Source: Candidatus Spongiihabitans thiooxidans | GTDB taxonomy: Bacteria; Pseudomonadota; Gammaproteobacteria; Arenicellales; Poriferihabitantaceae | DNA length: 64,000 nucleotides | Reading direction: 5' to 3' | Assembly: GCA_001543005.1 (NCBI GenBank) | Contig: LFLB01000007.1 | Location: forward strand, 124,001-188,000 | Part shown: positions 8,044 through 62,335 of the stretch, piece after piece | Position numbering within the stretch: position 1 is the stretch's first letter | Layout: every line of letters begins with the position of its first letter | The notes under the pieces: generated by a model | The model's database searches: none | What the model was told of the DNA's origin: nothing | What the model saw: the letters and a program-made list of their open reading frames with translations, nothing else | Translations under genes and position numbers: made by a program

Positions 8044-8398
8044 TGTCCGGGTTCACCATGTATGAGACAAAATCAGGCCGCCAAGGTCAGTTGCAGATTG
8101 CGGGACTAAAGTCCCGCGTCCGAAATGGGCATGATTGCCGGAAGTGAGGCTTTAGCCTCGCCAAGCCATTGCCAAGATGGCAGAACTAAAGTCCCGCGTC
8201 CGAGATGGGCATGATTGCCGGAAGCAGGGCTTTAGCCTCGCCAAGCCACTGCCAAGATGGCAGGACTAAAGTCCCGCGTCCGAAATGGGCATGATTGCCG
8301 GAAGTGAGGCTTTAGCCTCGCCAAGCCATTGCCAAGATGGCAGAACTAAAGTCCCGCGTCCGAGATGGGCATGATTGCCATGTGTCTGAGCCCGGACA
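8044..8398. mobile_element. IS-end-bounded, MITE-like element carrying an 80-bp repeat array
   Basis: The left end reads TGTCCGGGTTCACCATG, followed by a GAGACA box. The right end, read inwards on the other strand, is TGTCCGGGCTCAGACA. The two ends form an imperfect terminal inverted repeat of about 12 bases. The left end also matches the sequence at 16693, which there lies beside a relic of an integrase-type transposase. Nothing inside encodes a transposase; the interior is almost entirely the tandem array described separately. This suggests a non-autonomous derivative of that IS that has captured repeat units. Confidence 0.55.
8105..8379. repeat. Tandem array of 80-bp units (3.4 copies)
   Basis: The period is exactly 80 bp: units start at 8105, 8185, 8265 and 8345, the last being partial. 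Units 1 and 3 are identical, and units 2 and 4 share their own variant bases, so the array arose by doubling of a 160-bp dimer. Each unit holds the palindrome cores GGACTAAAGTCCC-like and GAGGCTTTAGCCTC. Related single units occur at 14993-15193 and 16882-16949. Confidence 0.85.
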
Positions 8399-8434
8399 TT
8401 TTATTTCGCTGGTTCAACTGCCGTGCTGCTGTAC

Positions 8435-56577: not shown

Positions 56578-56606
56578 TTGAAATAGTACCATCTAATTGG
56601 TATACT
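56578..56606 (+). promoter_or_regulatory. Strong sigma-70-like promoter
   Basis: TTGAAA (56578-56583) and TATACT (56601-56606) are separated by exactly 17 bp. The sequence TTGGTATACTGG over the -10 could be an operator. Transcription would begin near 56613 and meet the leader ORF and terminator before the 56734 gene. Confidence 0.7.
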
Positions 56607-56642
56607 GGTCTTAATTAATCACATCACTCAAGGGGAATTACA

Positions 56643-56669
56643 ATGACACGATATCACGAGATACCTTAA
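56643..56669 (+). CDS. Eight-codon leader ORF
   Basis: AAGGGGAATTACA supplies a ribosome-binding site before ATG; the ORF encodes MTRYHEIP and stops seven bases before the terminator stem. Its position between a strong promoter and a terminator suggests a leader peptide or a small-RNA gene. I cannot show that it is translated. Confidence 0.35.
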   Translation: MTRYHEIP

Positions 56670-56675
56670 CAAGTT

Positions 56676-56710
56676 CGCCGCCGTACTTTTGTGCGGTGGC
56701 GATTTTTTTT
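56676..56710 (+). terminator. Strong intrinsic terminator ahead of the 56734 gene
   Basis: CGCCGCCGTAC pairs with GTGCGGTGGCG (11 bp, two G-U pairs) around a TTTT loop and is followed by A and eight Ts. It lies about 65 bases after the likely transcription start and 24 bases before the next gene, so it should attenuate that gene or end a small RNA of about 95 bases. Confidence 0.85.
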
Positions 56711-56733
56711 AACTTTCTTTCTGGAGGTTTATC

Positions 56734-57360
56734 ATGTTGTTGGATAACAACGGCAAAAAAGATCATATCACTATCGGTAACCGCGGCCTTAGCGATGCGT
56801 ATGCCAAACGCATTTTGGATTTTTTACACGGTGAGGTTTATGGTTGGTGTAAAAACAATCCAGGTGAAGAACTTAGTGCCCAAAAATTAGTCGGTGGTGT
56901 AAATAGCAACTGGCAAGAGCCAATCGTGGAAATGTATCGCCATCGTGTACAAGCGGGTTCCTCCGACCCCGTGAAATCTGCCGGGCGAGATTGTGGGTAT
57001 TTTCTTCGTAGGGTGCTACAAGAAGACGATATGCGTGATTACATAAGAACGGGAACAACGTTTCCCGGGCAACACTATAAATGGATGCTTGATTTGAACG
57101 TCGTGCAAAGCATCGAGCAAAAAATCATTCTCGCCGTTCGTGGCATCCAAAACAGAGGCAAGACCAACAGTATAAAATGTGCATTTAATTTATTTACGAA
57201 ACGCTATCCAAACGCAAATACTATCGACTTACCGGCACCCGATAATGAGATTGTAAAAATCGTTACAGTAGGTAATGCCGCCATTGGATTTGCCAGCAAG
57301 GGCGATAATGCGACAACGATAAAAAAGAACTTAGCACTATTGTGTGGCGAACGTGAATAA
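56734..57360 (+). CDS. Uncharacterised protein, KRILDFL family copy A
   Basis: A 208-residue protein that I do not recognise. CTGGAGG lies upstream of the ATG. The segment AKRILDFLHGEVYGWCKN near residue 24 and KSAGRDCGYFLRRVLQEDD near 81 are matched in the protein encoded at 59418-59780, so the two are paralogues. The C-terminal half (NVVQSIEQKIILAVRGIQNR; TVGNAAIGFASKGDNATTIK) has no partner there. No signal peptide or membrane segment is evident. It lies behind a promoter-leader-terminator arrangement inside the glycan locus. Confidence 0.7.
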   Translation: MLLDNNGKKDHITIGNRGLSDAYAKRILDFLHGEVYGWCKNNPGEELSAQKLVGGVNSNWQEPIVEMYRHRVQAGSSDPVKSAGRDCGYFLRRVLQEDDMRDYIRTGTTFPGQHYKWMLDLNVVQSIEQKIILAVRGIQNRGKTNSIKCAFNLFTKRYPNANTIDLPAPDNEIVKIVTVGNAAIGFASKGDNATTIKKNLALLCGERE

Positions 57361-57661
57361 AATAAAACACCATGCGATATTATCATTTGCGCGACGCGCA
57401 CCCAAGGCAAACCATTGAAAGCGATAAAGGGTATGAGCAGAAAAGGATACGCTATTAACTGGTTATACCCACTCGGTTACAAGGATTCGGGGAAAATAGA
57501 ACCCAAATTCTGTCCGAAATTTGAAAAAATGTATCAAACCACTGCTGAATTTATTGTTGATTTCATTGACTACTATCGACCCTAAAAACCTTAAACACCC
57601 GGGGCGAGCGACCGCCCCACCGCCCCATTAGTATGATTCCACGTATCTTACGAATTATATT
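57361..57661 (+). other. In-frame coding-like remnant after the 56734 gene
   Basis: Directly after the TAA at 57358 the same frame stays open to 57585 and reads CDIIICATRTQGKPLKAIKG, then MSRKGYAINWLYPLGYKDSG and on to DFIDYYRP. From ATG 57433 it would give a 50-residue protein, but no ribosome-binding site is visible. It may be the tail of a longer protein cut by the stop, or a separate gene that lost its start. The last 75 bases before the next gene include a GGGGCGAGCGACCGCCCC palindrome. Confidence 0.4.
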
Positions 57662-58174
57662 ATGAAATTAAATATTGGTTGCGGTAATAAAGATATTGCC
57701 GGGTATGCGGGGGTTGATAAGTTTGAATGTGATGCCGCACAATATATTTGTGATATTGAAAATGAAAGGCTGCCGTTTGATAATGATAGTGTCAGTGCGA
57801 TTATCCTGGACAATGTTATTGAGCATTTTAATGATATTCCCAGTGTGATTAAAGAATTAGTTCGTGTGGCAAAAAAAGGCGCGATAATTAAAATAATAAC
57901 GCCACATTTTAGCTCGCTTGCTTCCTGGATAGACCCGACACACGTTCATCACTTGTCTTATTTCTCTTTTGATCATTTTGAGAGGAAAAATGTTGCACAT
58001 TATATTGGAGGGAAAAGTATAAAGGTAAAATATAGAAAGCTATCTTTTGGCGGCGGTGTTTTAGGGCTTACCGGTAGAATGCTATTTAATATTAATCCAA
58101 AAACCTATGAGAAAAAATATTGCTTTATATTCAGGGCATCAACTTTAACTTTTGAACTGGAAGTTATTGTTTAA
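57662..58174 (+). CDS. SAM-dependent methyltransferase (class I)
   Basis: A 170-residue protein beginning MKLNIGCGNKDIAGYAGVDK, a motif I variant common in polysaccharide-cluster methyltransferases, with an acidic strand-2 end. AIILDNVIEHFNDIPSVIKE near 63 and RVAKKGAIIKIITPH near 87 are motifs IV and post-IV. HVHHLSYFSFDHF follows, as in glycan-locus relatives. It probably methylates a sugar or a sugar precursor; the substrate is unknown. Confidence 0.8.
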   Translation: MKLNIGCGNKDIAGYAGVDKFECDAAQYICDIENERLPFDNDSVSAIILDNVIEHFNDIPSVIKELVRVAKKGAIIKIITPHFSSLASWIDPTHVHHLSYFSFDHFERKNVAHYIGGKSIKVKYRKLSFGGGVLGLTGRMLFNINPKTYEKKYCFIFRASTLTFELEVIV

Positions 58175-58233
58175 GAATCCGTATCGTATATTTAAAAAAT
58201 CGCCCAACATAAGCCCAACATAAGCATGAGATA

Positions 58234-59355
58234 ATGAATATTATCATGCCAATAAACCTGCCTTTGTGTGATAGAGGTATATTTGCTTTAGTGTGGGTAA
58301 GATTTGCTCATGCCTTGTCTAAAAAGCGTAAGGTTTATGTCATTTATTCAGGCAAGGTTAGCAATGGCGATATTGAAAAATACTACAATATCAGCATCAA
58401 TAATAATCTTTGTTTTTTATCAACCTGGCGCTGTAAGTTTTTTAAACCATTCAAATTAAGCATTTCTCAAGTTAGTGAATGTCATATCCTTAAACATATT
58501 TTTCAATTAACCAGGAACAATGCGCAAAAAGAATGGATAATTTATAACACCGAAGGGCTATTGCATAATTATTTGAAAAGGTTTTCATATAAAAACCAGA
58601 TTAAATATGTTTATGAAGTGCACAGCTTGTCTCATTTGCCCAACCTTCATAATATTCACTTAATAATAACCACCACAAATTCATTAAAAGATAAAATTGT
58701 CAGCAGTAATAGCAATATAGGAAAGGTGGAAACCAGATATTTATCGCCAAATATCCCGGATATTATTTCATGTGATTATCAAACCAGCGGCGATAGTAAA
58801 ACTTTGATTTATGCTGGAAAATTACATACTGATAGAGGCATTTATGTGCTTTTAGATAGTTTAAAATATTTAGATAACGAATATCAATTAGCAATTTTTG
58901 GTGGCATTGAGCGGGAAATAAAAAAAGCCAAAGATTATTGCAGAGAGCAGCGGATTAACCATAAAATTATCTTTTATGGTCATTTGCCTGTAGTGGAGTT
59001 AGCGGAAGAAATTGCCAACATTAAGGGCATTATTGTTATACCGCCTTTAAATATTAGAGGATATAATGAAATTGCCCACACCAAAGCCTCGGATGCGTTG
59101 GTAGCAGGAAGGGTAATTGTTGCAAGTGATTTATCCTCTATTCGGGAAATTGTACCCGCTGAGAACTATTTCTTTCAAGCTGGCAATGCGTCAGACTTAG
59201 CAAAAAAGATACAAGAAATCACTAATACAAAAGTTGAACAACTTAACGCTATTGTCAAAATTAATAAGGAAGCCGCGCAATTATTAACTTATGACAGTAT
59301 GGCAGATAACTTACTATCAATGCTGAAAAAACAGGCACGGCAAACAATGGGTTAG
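58234..59355 (+). CDS. Family 4 glycosyltransferase (AT-rich)
   Basis: A 373-residue GT-B-type protein. The N-terminal half (FALVWVRFAHALSKKRKVYV) is divergent; the donor domain is clearer: KTLIYAGKLHTDRGIYVLLD near 189, FYGHLPVVELAEEIANIKGI near 248 and NEIAHTKASDALVAGRVIVA near 279. Codon use is markedly AT-rich, suggesting transfer. It ends before a convergent uncharacterised gene. Confidence 0.8.
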   Translation: MNIIMPINLPLCDRGIFALVWVRFAHALSKKRKVYVIYSGKVSNGDIEKYYNISINNNLCFLSTWRCKFFKPFKLSISQVSECHILKHIFQLTRNNAQKEWIIYNTEGLLHNYLKRFSYKNQIKYVYEVHSLSHLPNLHNIHLIITTTNSLKDKIVSSNSNIGKVETRYLSPNIPDIISCDYQTSGDSKTLIYAGKLHTDRGIYVLLDSLKYLDNEYQLAIFGGIEREIKKAKDYCREQRINHKIIFYGHLPVVELAEEIANIKGIIVIPPLNIRGYNEIAHTKASDALVAGRVIVASDLSSIREIVPAENYFFQAGNASDLAKKIQEITNTKVEQLNAIVKINKEAAQLLTYDSMADNLLSMLKKQARQTMG

Positions 59356-59417
59356 CGACGACACGGGTTAGTTATCGAGGACAGCCCCTAAAATTAATTT
59401 TCAGTAGTTTGATTATG

Positions 59418-59780
59418 TCAAAATCGCAAACCATACTGTCTCGCACCGTGTCCATCCTGCATATTAAAATCTTTTTTGTCATTGAAAAGCATCAACTTTA
59501 ATAAGCACCCTACGTCGTGCCTTGATTGCTCCCATGCTGGTTTCCAAACTGCTTTGTCTTCTTTTGGTTTGTTTTTGTCATTGGCGATTTTTTCCAAATT
59601 CGCATCGTAGAGGTCTTGGAGAACAGTGCCATTCCAATCACCTTCGCATAGCGCCATCAAATCCCGAAAATGAAATAACTTGTCTTTTTGGCAACCACAC
59701 CAGCAATAAACAGCACCTTGCAGAAAATCAAGAATTCTCTTTTGTGTAGTGACGGAAATGACGCGAATTCGTTTGACCAT
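59418..59780 (-). CDS. Uncharacterised protein, KRILDFL family copy B
   Basis: A 120-residue protein of unknown function. Residues 13-30 (QKRILDFLQGAVYCWCGC) align with copy A at 56734-57360, as do a Trp/Leu/Tyr pattern (DWNGTVLQDLYDANLEKI against NWQEPIVEMYRHRV) and SRHDVGCLLKLMLFNDKKDF against AGRDCGYFLRRVLQEDDMRD. It lacks the C-terminal 100 residues of copy A and may be either a short form or truncated. It is convergent with the GT gene and followed, on its right, by the VapBC insertion zone. Confidence 0.6.
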   Translation of the reverse strand: MVKRIRVISVTTQKRILDFLQGAVYCWCGCQKDKLFHFRDLMALCEGDWNGTVLQDLYDANLEKIANDKNKPKEDKAVWKPAWEQSRHDVGCLLKLMLFNDKKDFNMQDGHGARQYGLRF

Positions 59781-59897
59781 GCCTTTGTCAGATATTTTTT
59801 TGTCATTTACATAGCGGAAATGCCATTATAAACAAAACAACTGGAAAATCAAATTTCGAAGTGTTCAAGGTCGTAAAGAATATTATTGTGAGCAAGG

Positions 59898-59969
59898 ATG
59901 ATTAAAAAATAACTTTTATTCGCGCCAATAAAATCAAATATGGCGGCGGCGGGGCTGAAGTTTATTGAG
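59898..59969 (+). pseudogene. Truncated duplicate of the 5' end of the 61274 glycosyltransferase gene
   Basis: About 70 bases from ATG 59898 match 61274-61343 with only a few differences. One missing A in the A-run makes the sixth codon position a stop in this copy. In the downstream frame it would encode TFIRANKIKYGGGGAEVY, then a TGA. The vapBC operon lies between the two copies. Confidence 0.75.
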
Positions 59970-60051: not shown

Positions 60052-60375
60052 ATGCGAATGCGAACCACAATAAACATAAACGACGAGCAACTGGCAACCG
60101 CCCAAGAGCTGACCGGGATTGAGCAAAAGCCGGCATTGGTGCGTGAAGCGCTTAAAGCGCTGATTGAACGAGAAAGCGCTCATCGACTGGCACGCTTAGG
60201 GGGTGCGTTTCCTAAGTTCAAAGCGGCGCCACGTCGCCGTTTTGAATCTATTGTTGCAGATGAGGAATCATCAGAAAAGCCGTTCCTCTTGGTAAATCTG
60301 AAAAAGGAATTCAAAGCCATGAAAAATGAGTCAGAAGTCGTCAAAACTCAACGCACTCTAAAGAGGAAGCGTTGA
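60052..60375 (+). CDS. vapB: VapB-family antitoxin with C-terminal extension
   Basis: A 107-residue protein. Residues 3-65 are a VapB antitoxin: RTTININDEQLATAQELTG, then ALVREALKALIERESAHRLA and RLGGAFPKFK, with a ribbon-helix-helix DNA-binding start. Relatives end near residue 70 after the PRRR motif; this one continues for about 37 lysine/glutamate-rich residues. GAGGA precedes the ATG. It should neutralise the VapC encoded 64 bases downstream. Confidence 0.85.
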   Translation: MRMRTTININDEQLATAQELTGIEQKPALVREALKALIERESAHRLARLGGAFPKFKAAPRRRFESIVADEESSEKPFLLVNLKKEFKAMKNESEVVKTQRTLKRKR

Positions 60376-60439: not shown

Positions 60440-60799
60440 ATGATTTTGATTGACACCTCCATTTGGGTCAACCACTTTCGCAAACCTGATGAAAATTTGT
60501 TAAGCCTACTGAACGACCAAAAAGCACTAATACACCCGATGGTAACCGGCGAGCTATTGTTGGGTGACTTGGACCGCCAAACGTTTCATTATATGAGCAA
60601 ATTGACGCAAGCAATAGTTGCCACCCATAATGAGGTCTTTGATTTTATTTTGGAATATTCATTAGCGCACAGGGGCATTGGGTTTGTTGATGCTCATTTG
60701 CTGGTATCGGCGGTGCTGTCAAATGCCGATTTGATGACTCGTGACAAGTCGCTGGCTAACGTGGCAAATGCAATAGGGTCGCGGCATAAGAAGCATTAA
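60440..60799 (+). CDS. vapC: VapC-family PIN-domain toxin
   Basis: A 119-residue PIN ribonuclease. MILIDTSIWVNHFRKPD carries Asp5; Glu38 is in VTGELLLGDL; Asp84 and Asp102 are in GFVDAHLLVSAVL and LMTRDKSLANVA. All four acidic positions of an active PIN domain are present. VapC toxins cleave tRNA or rRNA. The pair lies between two copies of a glycosyltransferase 5' end. Confidence 0.9.
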   Translation: MILIDTSIWVNHFRKPDENLLSLLNDQKALIHPMVTGELLLGDLDRQTFHYMSKLTQAIVATHNEVFDFILEYSLAHRGIGFVDAHLLVSAVLSNADLMTRDKSLANVANAIGSRHKKH

Positions 60800-61172: not shown

Positions 61173-61277
61173 ATGGCAGTCGCAAAGCCGATGAAACTCA
61201 AATTCGACATCGTGGTGCCGAGCGTGGCAATCCGCGAGGGCGTGTTGAAAAGCATCGAGATGATTATGCAAAGATGA
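61173..61277 (+). CDS. Small ORF overlapping the next glycosyltransferase start
   Basis: A 34-residue frame (MAVAKPMKLKFDIVVPSVAI, then REGVLKSIEMIMQR) with GGGAGAAAAT upstream. Its TGA overlaps the ATG of the 61274 gene (ATGA), so it could couple translation to that gene after the insertion event. I recognise no family; it may be the tail of a lost gene. Confidence 0.35.
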   Translation: MAVAKPMKLKFDIVVPSVAIREGVLKSIEMIMQR

Positions 61278-62335
61278 TTAAAAAAATAACCTTCATTCGC
61301 GCTAATAAAATCAAATATGGCGGCGGCGGGGCTGAAGTTTATTTATCGCGCTTGTCAGAAGCGCTGGCTAGGCAGAGCATCAGCCATTCAATTGTTCACT
61401 CCATTTTTCCTGAATTCTTGCCTTCCTGGATACGGGTCTTATTATTTAATCTGCAAACCTGCTTAACCAAGGGCGACAAGTTTTATTTTTCACTGGAAAG
61501 AATTACTTGCCCGGATATTTATCGTGCCGGTGATGGTGTTCATAAAGTCTATATGCGTATTGAGAATAAAAGTATTTTCAATTTATTGCATGTCGTGTAT
61601 TTATTTATAGAAAAACGCTGTTTTGAAAATGCCAAACACATCATAGCGAATTCGCAAATGATAAAAGATGAAATTATTGCCACTTATGACATTGACCCAA
61701 AGAAAATAAGCGTTGTTTATAGTGGTATGAATTTCAAAAAGATAGATTACCCGTGCTCTTTTGCAAAGTTATCCAAGGAATTTTCAATCCAGCAGAATAA
61801 AAAAATACTGCTTTATGTTGGTAGCGGTTTTAAGCGAAAAGGCGTTGAAGAATTTTTGCATATTGTTGCTCGACTAAAAAACAAAGACCTCAAAGCCTTT
61901 ATTGTCGGCCGGGAAAGCAACAGTCAATTTTATTGTCAGTTGGCAAAGCAATTAAAAATTGATAATCAAGTTGTTTTTACCGGCATACGAGATGATGTGG
62001 ATGATTTCTACGCTATCAGCGATATTTTTTTATTGCCCACGCATTATGATCCGTTTTCTAATGTCGTTTTAGAGGCGATGAGTTTCGAAAATGCAGTTTT
62101 TACGACAAAACAAAATGGCGCCAGTGAGATACTCAAGCAACCGTTTATAATGGAAAACCCTAAAGATTTTTCAATCGTGGAAAAGATTGATAACTTGCTG
62201 AATAATGCTGAAGACTTGCAAAATATCAAACAACAGAACAAATTCAAATCAGCAGAGTTTTCTATTGATGCTAACCTTGAGAAAACATTGGCTATTATAA
62301 ATGGAGCGAATGAAGGCGCGGATTTCACGAATTGA
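61274..62335 (+). CDS. Family 4 glycosyltransferase (LPS core-like)
   Basis: A 353-residue GT-B enzyme beginning FIRANKIKYGGGGAEVYLSR (GGGGAE acceptor loop), with DIYRAGDGVHKVYMRIENKS near 79, HIIANSQMIKDEIIATYDID near 121, LLYVGSGFKRKGVEEFLHIV near 178 and HYDPFSNVVLEAMSFENAVF near 256 (E-x7-E-like). The pattern resembles WaaG-family LPS core transferases. AT-rich. A short duplicate of its 5' end lies 1.4 kb upstream. Confidence 0.86.
   Translation: MIKKITFIRANKIKYGGGGAEVYLSRLSEALARQSISHSIVHSIFPEFLPSWIRVLLFNLQTCLTKGDKFYFSLERITCPDIYRAGDGVHKVYMRIENKSIFNLLHVVYLFIEKRCFENAKHIIANSQMIKDEIIATYDIDPKKISVVYSGMNFKKIDYPCSFAKLSKEFSIQQNKKILLYVGSGFKRKGVEEFLHIVARLKNKDLKAFIVGRESNSQFYCQLAKQLKIDNQVVFTGIRDDVDDFYAISDIFLLPTHYDPFSNVVLEAMSFENAVFTTKQNGASEILKQPFIMENPKDFSIVEKIDNLLNNAEDLQNIKQQNKFKSAEFSIDANLEKTLAIINGANEGADFTN

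What the first reader, a model, noticed from the sequence alone, without database searches (positions are those of the whole stretch)
56734..59780. A small unrecognised protein family in two divergent copies inside the glycan locus
The proteins at 56734-57360 (+) and 59418-59780 (-) share KRILDFLxGxVYxWC, a following Trp/Tyr pattern and a GRDxGxxL-like block (SRHDVGCLL in copy B), in the same order, but differ in length (208 and 120 residues) and strand. Two copies within 3 kb between glycosyltransferases, with no known domain, suggests a mobile or immunity-type family rather than glycan synthesis.
Basis: seen in the sequence. Interest (0 to 1): 0.6.

Follow-up and report, generated by a model that had tools for sequence, protein, structure and literature searches.

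The report
Unnamed winged-helix family in defence islands
Two very different copies of a small, previously undescribed winged-helix protein sit in a sugar-chain gene cluster; relatives are rare, scattered over at least seven bacterial phyla and often found beside anti-phage and toxin-antitoxin genes, so this looks like a travelling gene of bacterial conflict rather than a sugar-making enzyme.

Summary
A profile built only from outside relatives picks out copy A (E 1.3e-25) and copy B (1.6e-24), and nothing else, among 813 open frames of the window. Both are divergent members of one unnamed family of about 115 residues with the core FLQGAVYCWCKNRxxEWFxxRDLxGG...AGKDxGWLLK...YRW. No Pfam, NCBIfam, PHROG, PADLOC or PDB-sequence match reaches a cut-off. 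Both copies are predicted to fold as a winged helix (B mean pLDDT 88). Copy A also has an unmatched 88-residue C-terminal extension.

I found 41 relatives in 84,980 species genomes and about a dozen more by whole-genome search, usually one per genome, across at least seven phyla, and none in phage collections. Neighbours are strongly enriched for defence genes (263 PADLOC models matched by 104 neighbours, 9 by 97 control proteins).

Best explanation: a horizontally spread single-gene accessory of defence and mobile islands that acts by binding nucleic acid. An auto-repressor with a shared operator is not supported: no common upstream operator was found. The biochemical activity is unknown.

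The parts
56734..57360 (+). Copy A, 208 aa: winged-helix core (about residues 17-118) plus unmatched C-terminal extension (about 121-208)
57094..57357 (+). Copy A C-terminal extension, no relative in plasmids or the loci held; predicted helix-helix-three strands-helix at low confidence
59418..59780 (-). Copy B, 120 aa, core only; has lost several near-invariant residues (GGxN, P, final W)
56578..56606 (+). Promoter-like TTGAAA-17-TATACT ahead of copy A (promoter-like sites in this stretch do not exceed chance in number)
56643..56669 (+). Possible 8-codon leader peptide MTRYHEIP* between that promoter and the terminator
   Evidence: read from sequence
56675..56710 (+). Strong intrinsic terminator (12-pair stem plus T8) 23 nt before the start of copy A; either the end of the upstream glycosyltransferase unit or an attenuator of copy A
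59345..59388 (-). Solitary IS1595-type terminal sequence fused to the 3' end of the glycosyltransferase at 58234-59355 and close to the 3' end of copy B
59825..59852 (-). Promoter-like TTGATT-16-TATAAT ahead of copy B
59892..59966 (+). Broken duplicate of the 5' end of the glycosyltransferase at 61274 (other copy 61268-61343, 93%), bracketing vapBC
60052..60375 (+). VapB-type antitoxin, conflict-gene neighbour of copy B
60440..60799 (+). PIN-domain (VapC-type) toxin

Best explanation
Both genes are divergent members of one unnamed family of compact, mostly single-domain winged-helix proteins. Shown here: common descent of the two cores, predicted winged-helix fold, patchy single-copy distribution across phyla, presence in conjugative elements, and enrichment of anti-phage and toxin-antitoxin genes next door. 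Inferred: the protein is an autonomous accessory of defence and mobile islands that works by binding nucleic acid through its recognition helix and basic wing, either as a sensor or effector of invading DNA or as a modulator of neighbouring conflict genes. In this genome the glycan locus acts as an insertion hot spot (Fic, AAA_15 plus PIN, DUF4143 ATPase, copies A and B, VapBC, IS1595 relic), and the copies are cargo rather than part of glycan synthesis.
For: Leave-out profile finds A and B and nothing else in the window. AlphaFold core of A has blocks of pLDDT 72-94 and B averages 88; both show helices followed by a C-terminal hairpin. VIA-align rows are mostly winged helices (B: CST/Stn1 Z 7.2, 97 residues, 3.4 A; MukE Z 7.0, 90 residues, 3.4 A; A: p45C Z 7.8, 88 residues, 2.7 A; SCCmec LP1413 Z 6.2, 79 residues, 3.2 A), all below Z 8. 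Relatives in at least seven phyla, with phyla mixed in the tree. Immediate neighbours include Zeta toxin, type I RM genes, AAA_13, AAA_15, putAbiC, CAP12-type TIR, caspase-like, AbiJ_NTD4, reverse transcriptase and AIPR. Neighbours match 263 PADLOC models, control genes of a subset of the same host genomes 9. One Bacteroidota lineage sits at the end of a tra operon.
Against: No biochemical activity was tested, and DNA binding is inferred from a fold that can also serve protein contacts (MukE, kleisins). Fold matches stay below Z 8. The 263 v 9 contrast counts models, and restriction-system models are redundant, so the enrichment factor is not literal. Several members sit after housekeeping genes (dnaK in L045, flagellin in L073, parB in L066, atpA in L033). 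No relative was found in phages, which fits defence but also many other roles.
Confidence: 0.5

Rival explanations
1. It is a transcriptional regulator of the adjacent defence or TA operon (and of itself), working like BrxR/CapW or RptR but with a bare winged helix and no sensor domain.
For: Winged-helix fold; tight co-directional neighbours, with overlaps in L038, L042, L047, L053; precedent of small or winged-helix regulators shared by defence systems (PMC9122601, PMC12255303).
Against: No enrichment of inverted repeats upstream (arm 7: 8/46 v 46/332, p 0.5) and no shared upstream word other than A/T runs. It is often the downstream gene of the pair rather than the first gene, and neighbours vary without a constant regulated partner.
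Confidence: 0.25
2. It is a mobile-element protein (anti-restriction or element maintenance) carried by conjugative elements and left behind in islands.
For: Four Prevotella-type chromosomes and a P. nigrescens plasmid carry it beside tra or other conjugation genes; several relatives lie beside type I restriction genes; an IS end lies next to copy B.
Against: Most loci show no conjugation genes nearby; nothing in phages or IMG/VR; no match to any family of the libraries used.
Confidence: 0.12
3. It is an antitoxin or immunity partner of a toxin encoded next door.
For: Small size; VapBC beside copy B, Zeta toxin beside L033.
Against: No constant partner gene: the only recurring neighbours are shared island genes of a few related loci.
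Confidence: 0.07
4. The copies in this genome are decaying and have no present function.
For: Both are the longest branches of the tree; B lacks several near-invariant residues; three of 40 other genomes carry in-frame stops.
Against: Both frames are intact and keep the predicted core fold; without close relatives selection cannot be measured.
Confidence: 0.06

Closest known systems
BrxR/CapW WYL-domain regulators of defence islands (PMC9122601)
   Same: Winged-helix DNA-binding part; one family found beside many unrelated defence systems
   Different: BrxR is 295 aa with a WYL ligand-binding domain and is mostly proteobacterial; this family is ~115 aa, has no WYL match and most of the relatives found are in Bacteroidota and Spirochaetota
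RptR, 79-aa repressor of type I restriction islands (PMC12255303)
   Same: Very small single-domain protein in defence islands, often with type I restriction genes
   Different: RptR has four helices, no wing, a palindromic operator and is the first gene; here a beta hairpin is predicted, no operator was found and position varies
Winged-helix 6mA readers of DpnI/HhiV4I-type type IV restriction enzymes (PMC11037411)
   Same: Winged helix used in conflict systems
   Different: Those are fused to nucleases; no nuclease fusion was seen here and the PDB sequence search gave no such match
LP1413, nucleic-acid-binding winged helix of SCCmec (PDB 6btc)
   Same: Similar small fold (Z 6.2, 79 residues, 3.2 A) on a mobile element
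   Different: No sequence relationship detected; Z is tied with unrelated winged helices

Membership tests
Winged-helix superfamily | Three-helix core followed by a beta-hairpin wing | tested here: met
   Predicted for both copies; PDB rows mostly winged helices but all below Z 8
BrxR/CapW | C-terminal WYL domain | tested here: not met
   Core is ~115 aa and no member of A5 matches a WYL family in Pfam or NCBIfam
BrxR/CapW and RptR type auto-repressors | Inverted-repeat operator upstream of the regulator gene | tested here: not met
   Inverted repeats no commoner than before control genes, no shared word beyond A/T runs; single operators in individual loci cannot be excluded
RptR | 79-aa all-helical homodimer | tested here: not met
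   ~115 aa with a predicted hairpin; dimerisation not testable here; RptR itself was not compared directly
DpnI-type 6mA reader | Sequence or structure match to the DpnI winged helix and 6mA-specific binding | tested here: inconclusive
   No PDB sequence match and DpnI not among rows listed, which does not exclude it; binding not testable
Known PADLOC defence protein | Match to a PADLOC model | tested here: not met
   Best E-value among 36 members 0.0057, single member
SepF / GLGE_C | Pfam gathering score over the domain | tested here: not met
   Below cut-off and only 20-31 residues matched
Polymorphic-toxin immunity protein | Constant neighbouring toxin gene | tested here: not met
   No constant neighbour cluster

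The most novel reading that the evidence does not exclude
A new single-gene anti-phage or anti-plasmid module built from one winged helix, which senses or binds invading nucleic acid and is traded between phyla as cargo of defence islands and conjugative elements.
Probability: 0.2. Interest if true: 0.75.

Novelty: new variant of a known kind. Interest (0 to 1): 0.42.

Why it matters
It defines a protein family that no curated library used here holds, gives it a predicted fold, a distribution and a genomic context, and turns an anonymous pair of ORFs in a sugar locus into a testable candidate of bacterial conflict biology. If members protect against phage or plasmids they would be very small stand-alone defence genes; if they regulate islands they would add a sensor-free regulator.

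Tried and rejected
Self-mobile cassette: flanking direct repeats exist in L033 (28 bp), L035 (45 bp, hsdS end), L039 (91 bp array), L050 (97 bp), L056 (100 bp), but control genes of the same loci show them too (8/34 v 13/116, p 0.09), and the L033 repeat is not followed by atpG. Local duplication of A and B: 24-27% identical and not paired in the tree, but a joint clade is not rejected (AU p 0.26), so undecided. Auto-repressor with shared operator: no support. Phage origin: no match in INPHARED or IMG/VR. SepF and GLGE_C weak hits: short and below cut-off. DpnI was not listed among the fold matches (no conclusion). The A extension resembled parts of terminal uridylyltransferases at Z 5 on a low-confidence model, so not used.

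Full report
Observation. The two open frames are present as described. Directly compared they give BLASTP E 8e-8 over 50 residues and a Smith-Waterman score of 71 against a shuffle mean of 25.5 (sd 4.4, maximum 55 of 5000). Neither has a significant Pfam or NCBIfam match. In their own genome each finds only the other, and both independently find the same outside relatives: a gene in a genome of the same family (G012) and a gene of a Prevotella nigrescens plasmid.

Family. A four-sequence profile found 41 relatives among 84,980 species genomes, none in IMG/VR or in phage records. Most are stand-alone genes of 107-125 codons. The consensus is IRxVxGISxExxxRIxDFLQGAVYCWCKNRxDEWFxxRDLxGGDNxYWEGTPLxxLYxKH...AGKDAGWLLKxVIxxDKRxFET...VRxYRW, with ten invariant columns. 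A profile from the 34 outside sequences alone scores copy A at 1.3e-25 and copy B at 1.6e-24 and nothing else among 813 stop-to-stop frames of the window. No library gives a match above cut-off; GLGE_C and SepF hits cover 20-31 residues below threshold. A text search for the core motif in 5.39 million papers found nothing.

Fold. AlphaFold with the family alignment gives copy B mean pLDDT 88, pTM 0.80, and the core of copy A blocks of 72-94. Both have a long first helix, short second helix, an inserted helix, a long fourth (recognition-type) helix and a C-terminal beta hairpin: a winged helix with one extra helix. Foldseek gives nothing significant. VIA-align rows are mostly winged helices (Stn1/CST, MukE, kleisin ends, Nse3, LP1413 of SCCmec, FOX domains), best Z 7.8 (88 residues, 2.7 A) for A and 7.2 (97 residues, 3.4 A) for B; these are below the tool's trust level for any one relative, so I claim the fold class only. 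The 88-residue extension of copy A has low confidence and no relative in plasmids or in the loci held.

Distribution. Whole-genome searches gave 1/398 Pseudomonadota, 2/395 Bacteroidota, 6/393 of the order of the Paludibacter genome, 11/393 Spirochaetota and 2/24 of the window's own family. These draws include seed genomes, so they are rough. Copies are single in 38 of 40 host genomes examined; three Spirochaetota genomes show two matches. In-frame stops occur in three of the 40 (L056, L061, L072). The tree mixes phyla (Pseudomonadota and Nitrospirota members pair at 100/98; Spirochaetota and Bacteroidota at 99/91). A and B are the longest branches and do not pair, but a clade of both is not rejected (p 0.26), so separate acquisition and old duplication both remain open.

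Context. Neighbour genes were annotated by Pfam and PADLOC. Adjacent or close by are: Zeta toxin (L033), hsdS/AAA_13/hsdM (L035), hsdS repeats (L039), AAA_15 (L040), putAbiC (L041), an N6 methylase-specificity gene and a HEPN-like gene below cut-off (L042), CAP12-type TIR and a caspase-like gene (L043), AbiJ_NTD4 (L045), reverse transcriptase (L063), AIPR (L065) (the hsdS assignment of L035 and L039 rests on my reading and the tally). 104 neighbours match 263 PADLOC models at 1e-10; 97 proteins from arbitrary stretches of a subset of the same host genomes match 9. The restriction models are redundant, so the ratio overstates, but the direction is clear. From sequence alone I also read HsdR-like, AbiEi-like, DUF3800-like, Z1-like and Schlafen-like neighbours among the Spirochaetota and further members; these were not checked against a library. 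Prevotella members lie at the end of a tra operon and are followed by a complete 5S rRNA gene. Other members follow dnaK, flagellin, parB or atpA (read from sequence).

The window itself. The glycan locus holds Fic, AAA_15 plus PIN, an AAA_14/DUF4143 ATPase, copy A, a methyltransferase, copy B and VapBC among glycosyltransferases. Beside copy B lies a solitary IS1595-type terminus, GGGGCTGTCCTCGATAACTAACCC (59365-59388), of the same type as ends next to an IS1595-like transposase elsewhere in the genome; the outer end faces copy B and the inner end supplies the last codons of the glycosyltransferase. The transposase fragment matched PF12762 only below cut-off, and I had mistyped its first residues. 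A 76-nt copy of the 5' end of the glycosyltransferase at 61274 lies at 59892-59966 and brackets vapBC. So this stretch has been rearranged repeatedly. Copy A is preceded by a strong terminator only 23 nt before its start; family members have such terminators within 130 nt more often than other genes (6/38 v 11/329, p 0.004; two of the six are related Prevotella-type loci). This may mean that the gene tends to land behind terminated genes, or that some members are under attenuation; I cannot tell which.

Function. The evidence fits an accessory gene of bacterial conflict that binds nucleic acid. A regulator role like BrxR/CapW (PMC9122601) or RptR (PMC12255303) was tested by looking for shared operators; none was found. 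Repeat-mediated self-mobility was tested and not supported. A toxin-immunity role lacks a constant partner. What remains most likely is a stand-alone accessory protein whose exact act, sensing or blocking invading DNA or tuning neighbours, needs experiments.

Noticed in passing
window 59345-59388: Solitary IS1595-type end fused to the 3' end of the glycosyltransferase 58234-59355, whose last codons appear to derive from it; sign of an IS-mediated rearrangement.
   Followed up: partly
window 59892-59966 and 61268-61343: 76-nt, 93% identical direct repeat of a glycosyltransferase 5' end bracketing vapBC, suggesting vapBC was inserted with duplication of flanking sequence.
   Followed up: partly
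window 56578-56734: Promoter-like site, 8-codon leader ORF ending in Pro-stop, intrinsic terminator and then the ribosome site of copy A: reads like a transcription attenuator.
   Followed up: partly
L068, L070, L071, L072 about 8294-8423: Complete 5S rRNA gene directly after the family gene in Prevotella-type conjugative elements; two of the four genomes also show another 5S match elsewhere.
   Followed up: partly
L039 2365-4255: Tandem array of small genes separated by ~90-bp copies of what looks like an hsdS 3' end, in a Saprospiraceae genome; L035 shows a single such repeat around the family gene.
   Followed up: partly
L033 7854-12384: The normally adjacent atpA and atpG appear separated by a repeat-rich insertion of about 4.5 kb carrying the family gene and a Zeta toxin.
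   Followed up: partly
L073 7352-8107: Two copies of the family domain fused in tandem in one 251-aa frame, after a flagellin array.
   Followed up: no
L149 472-840 and L150 709-1074: Spirochaetota relatives directly after nucleotide-sugar epimerase and dehydrogenase genes (read from sequence): another case of this family in glycan loci.
   Followed up: no
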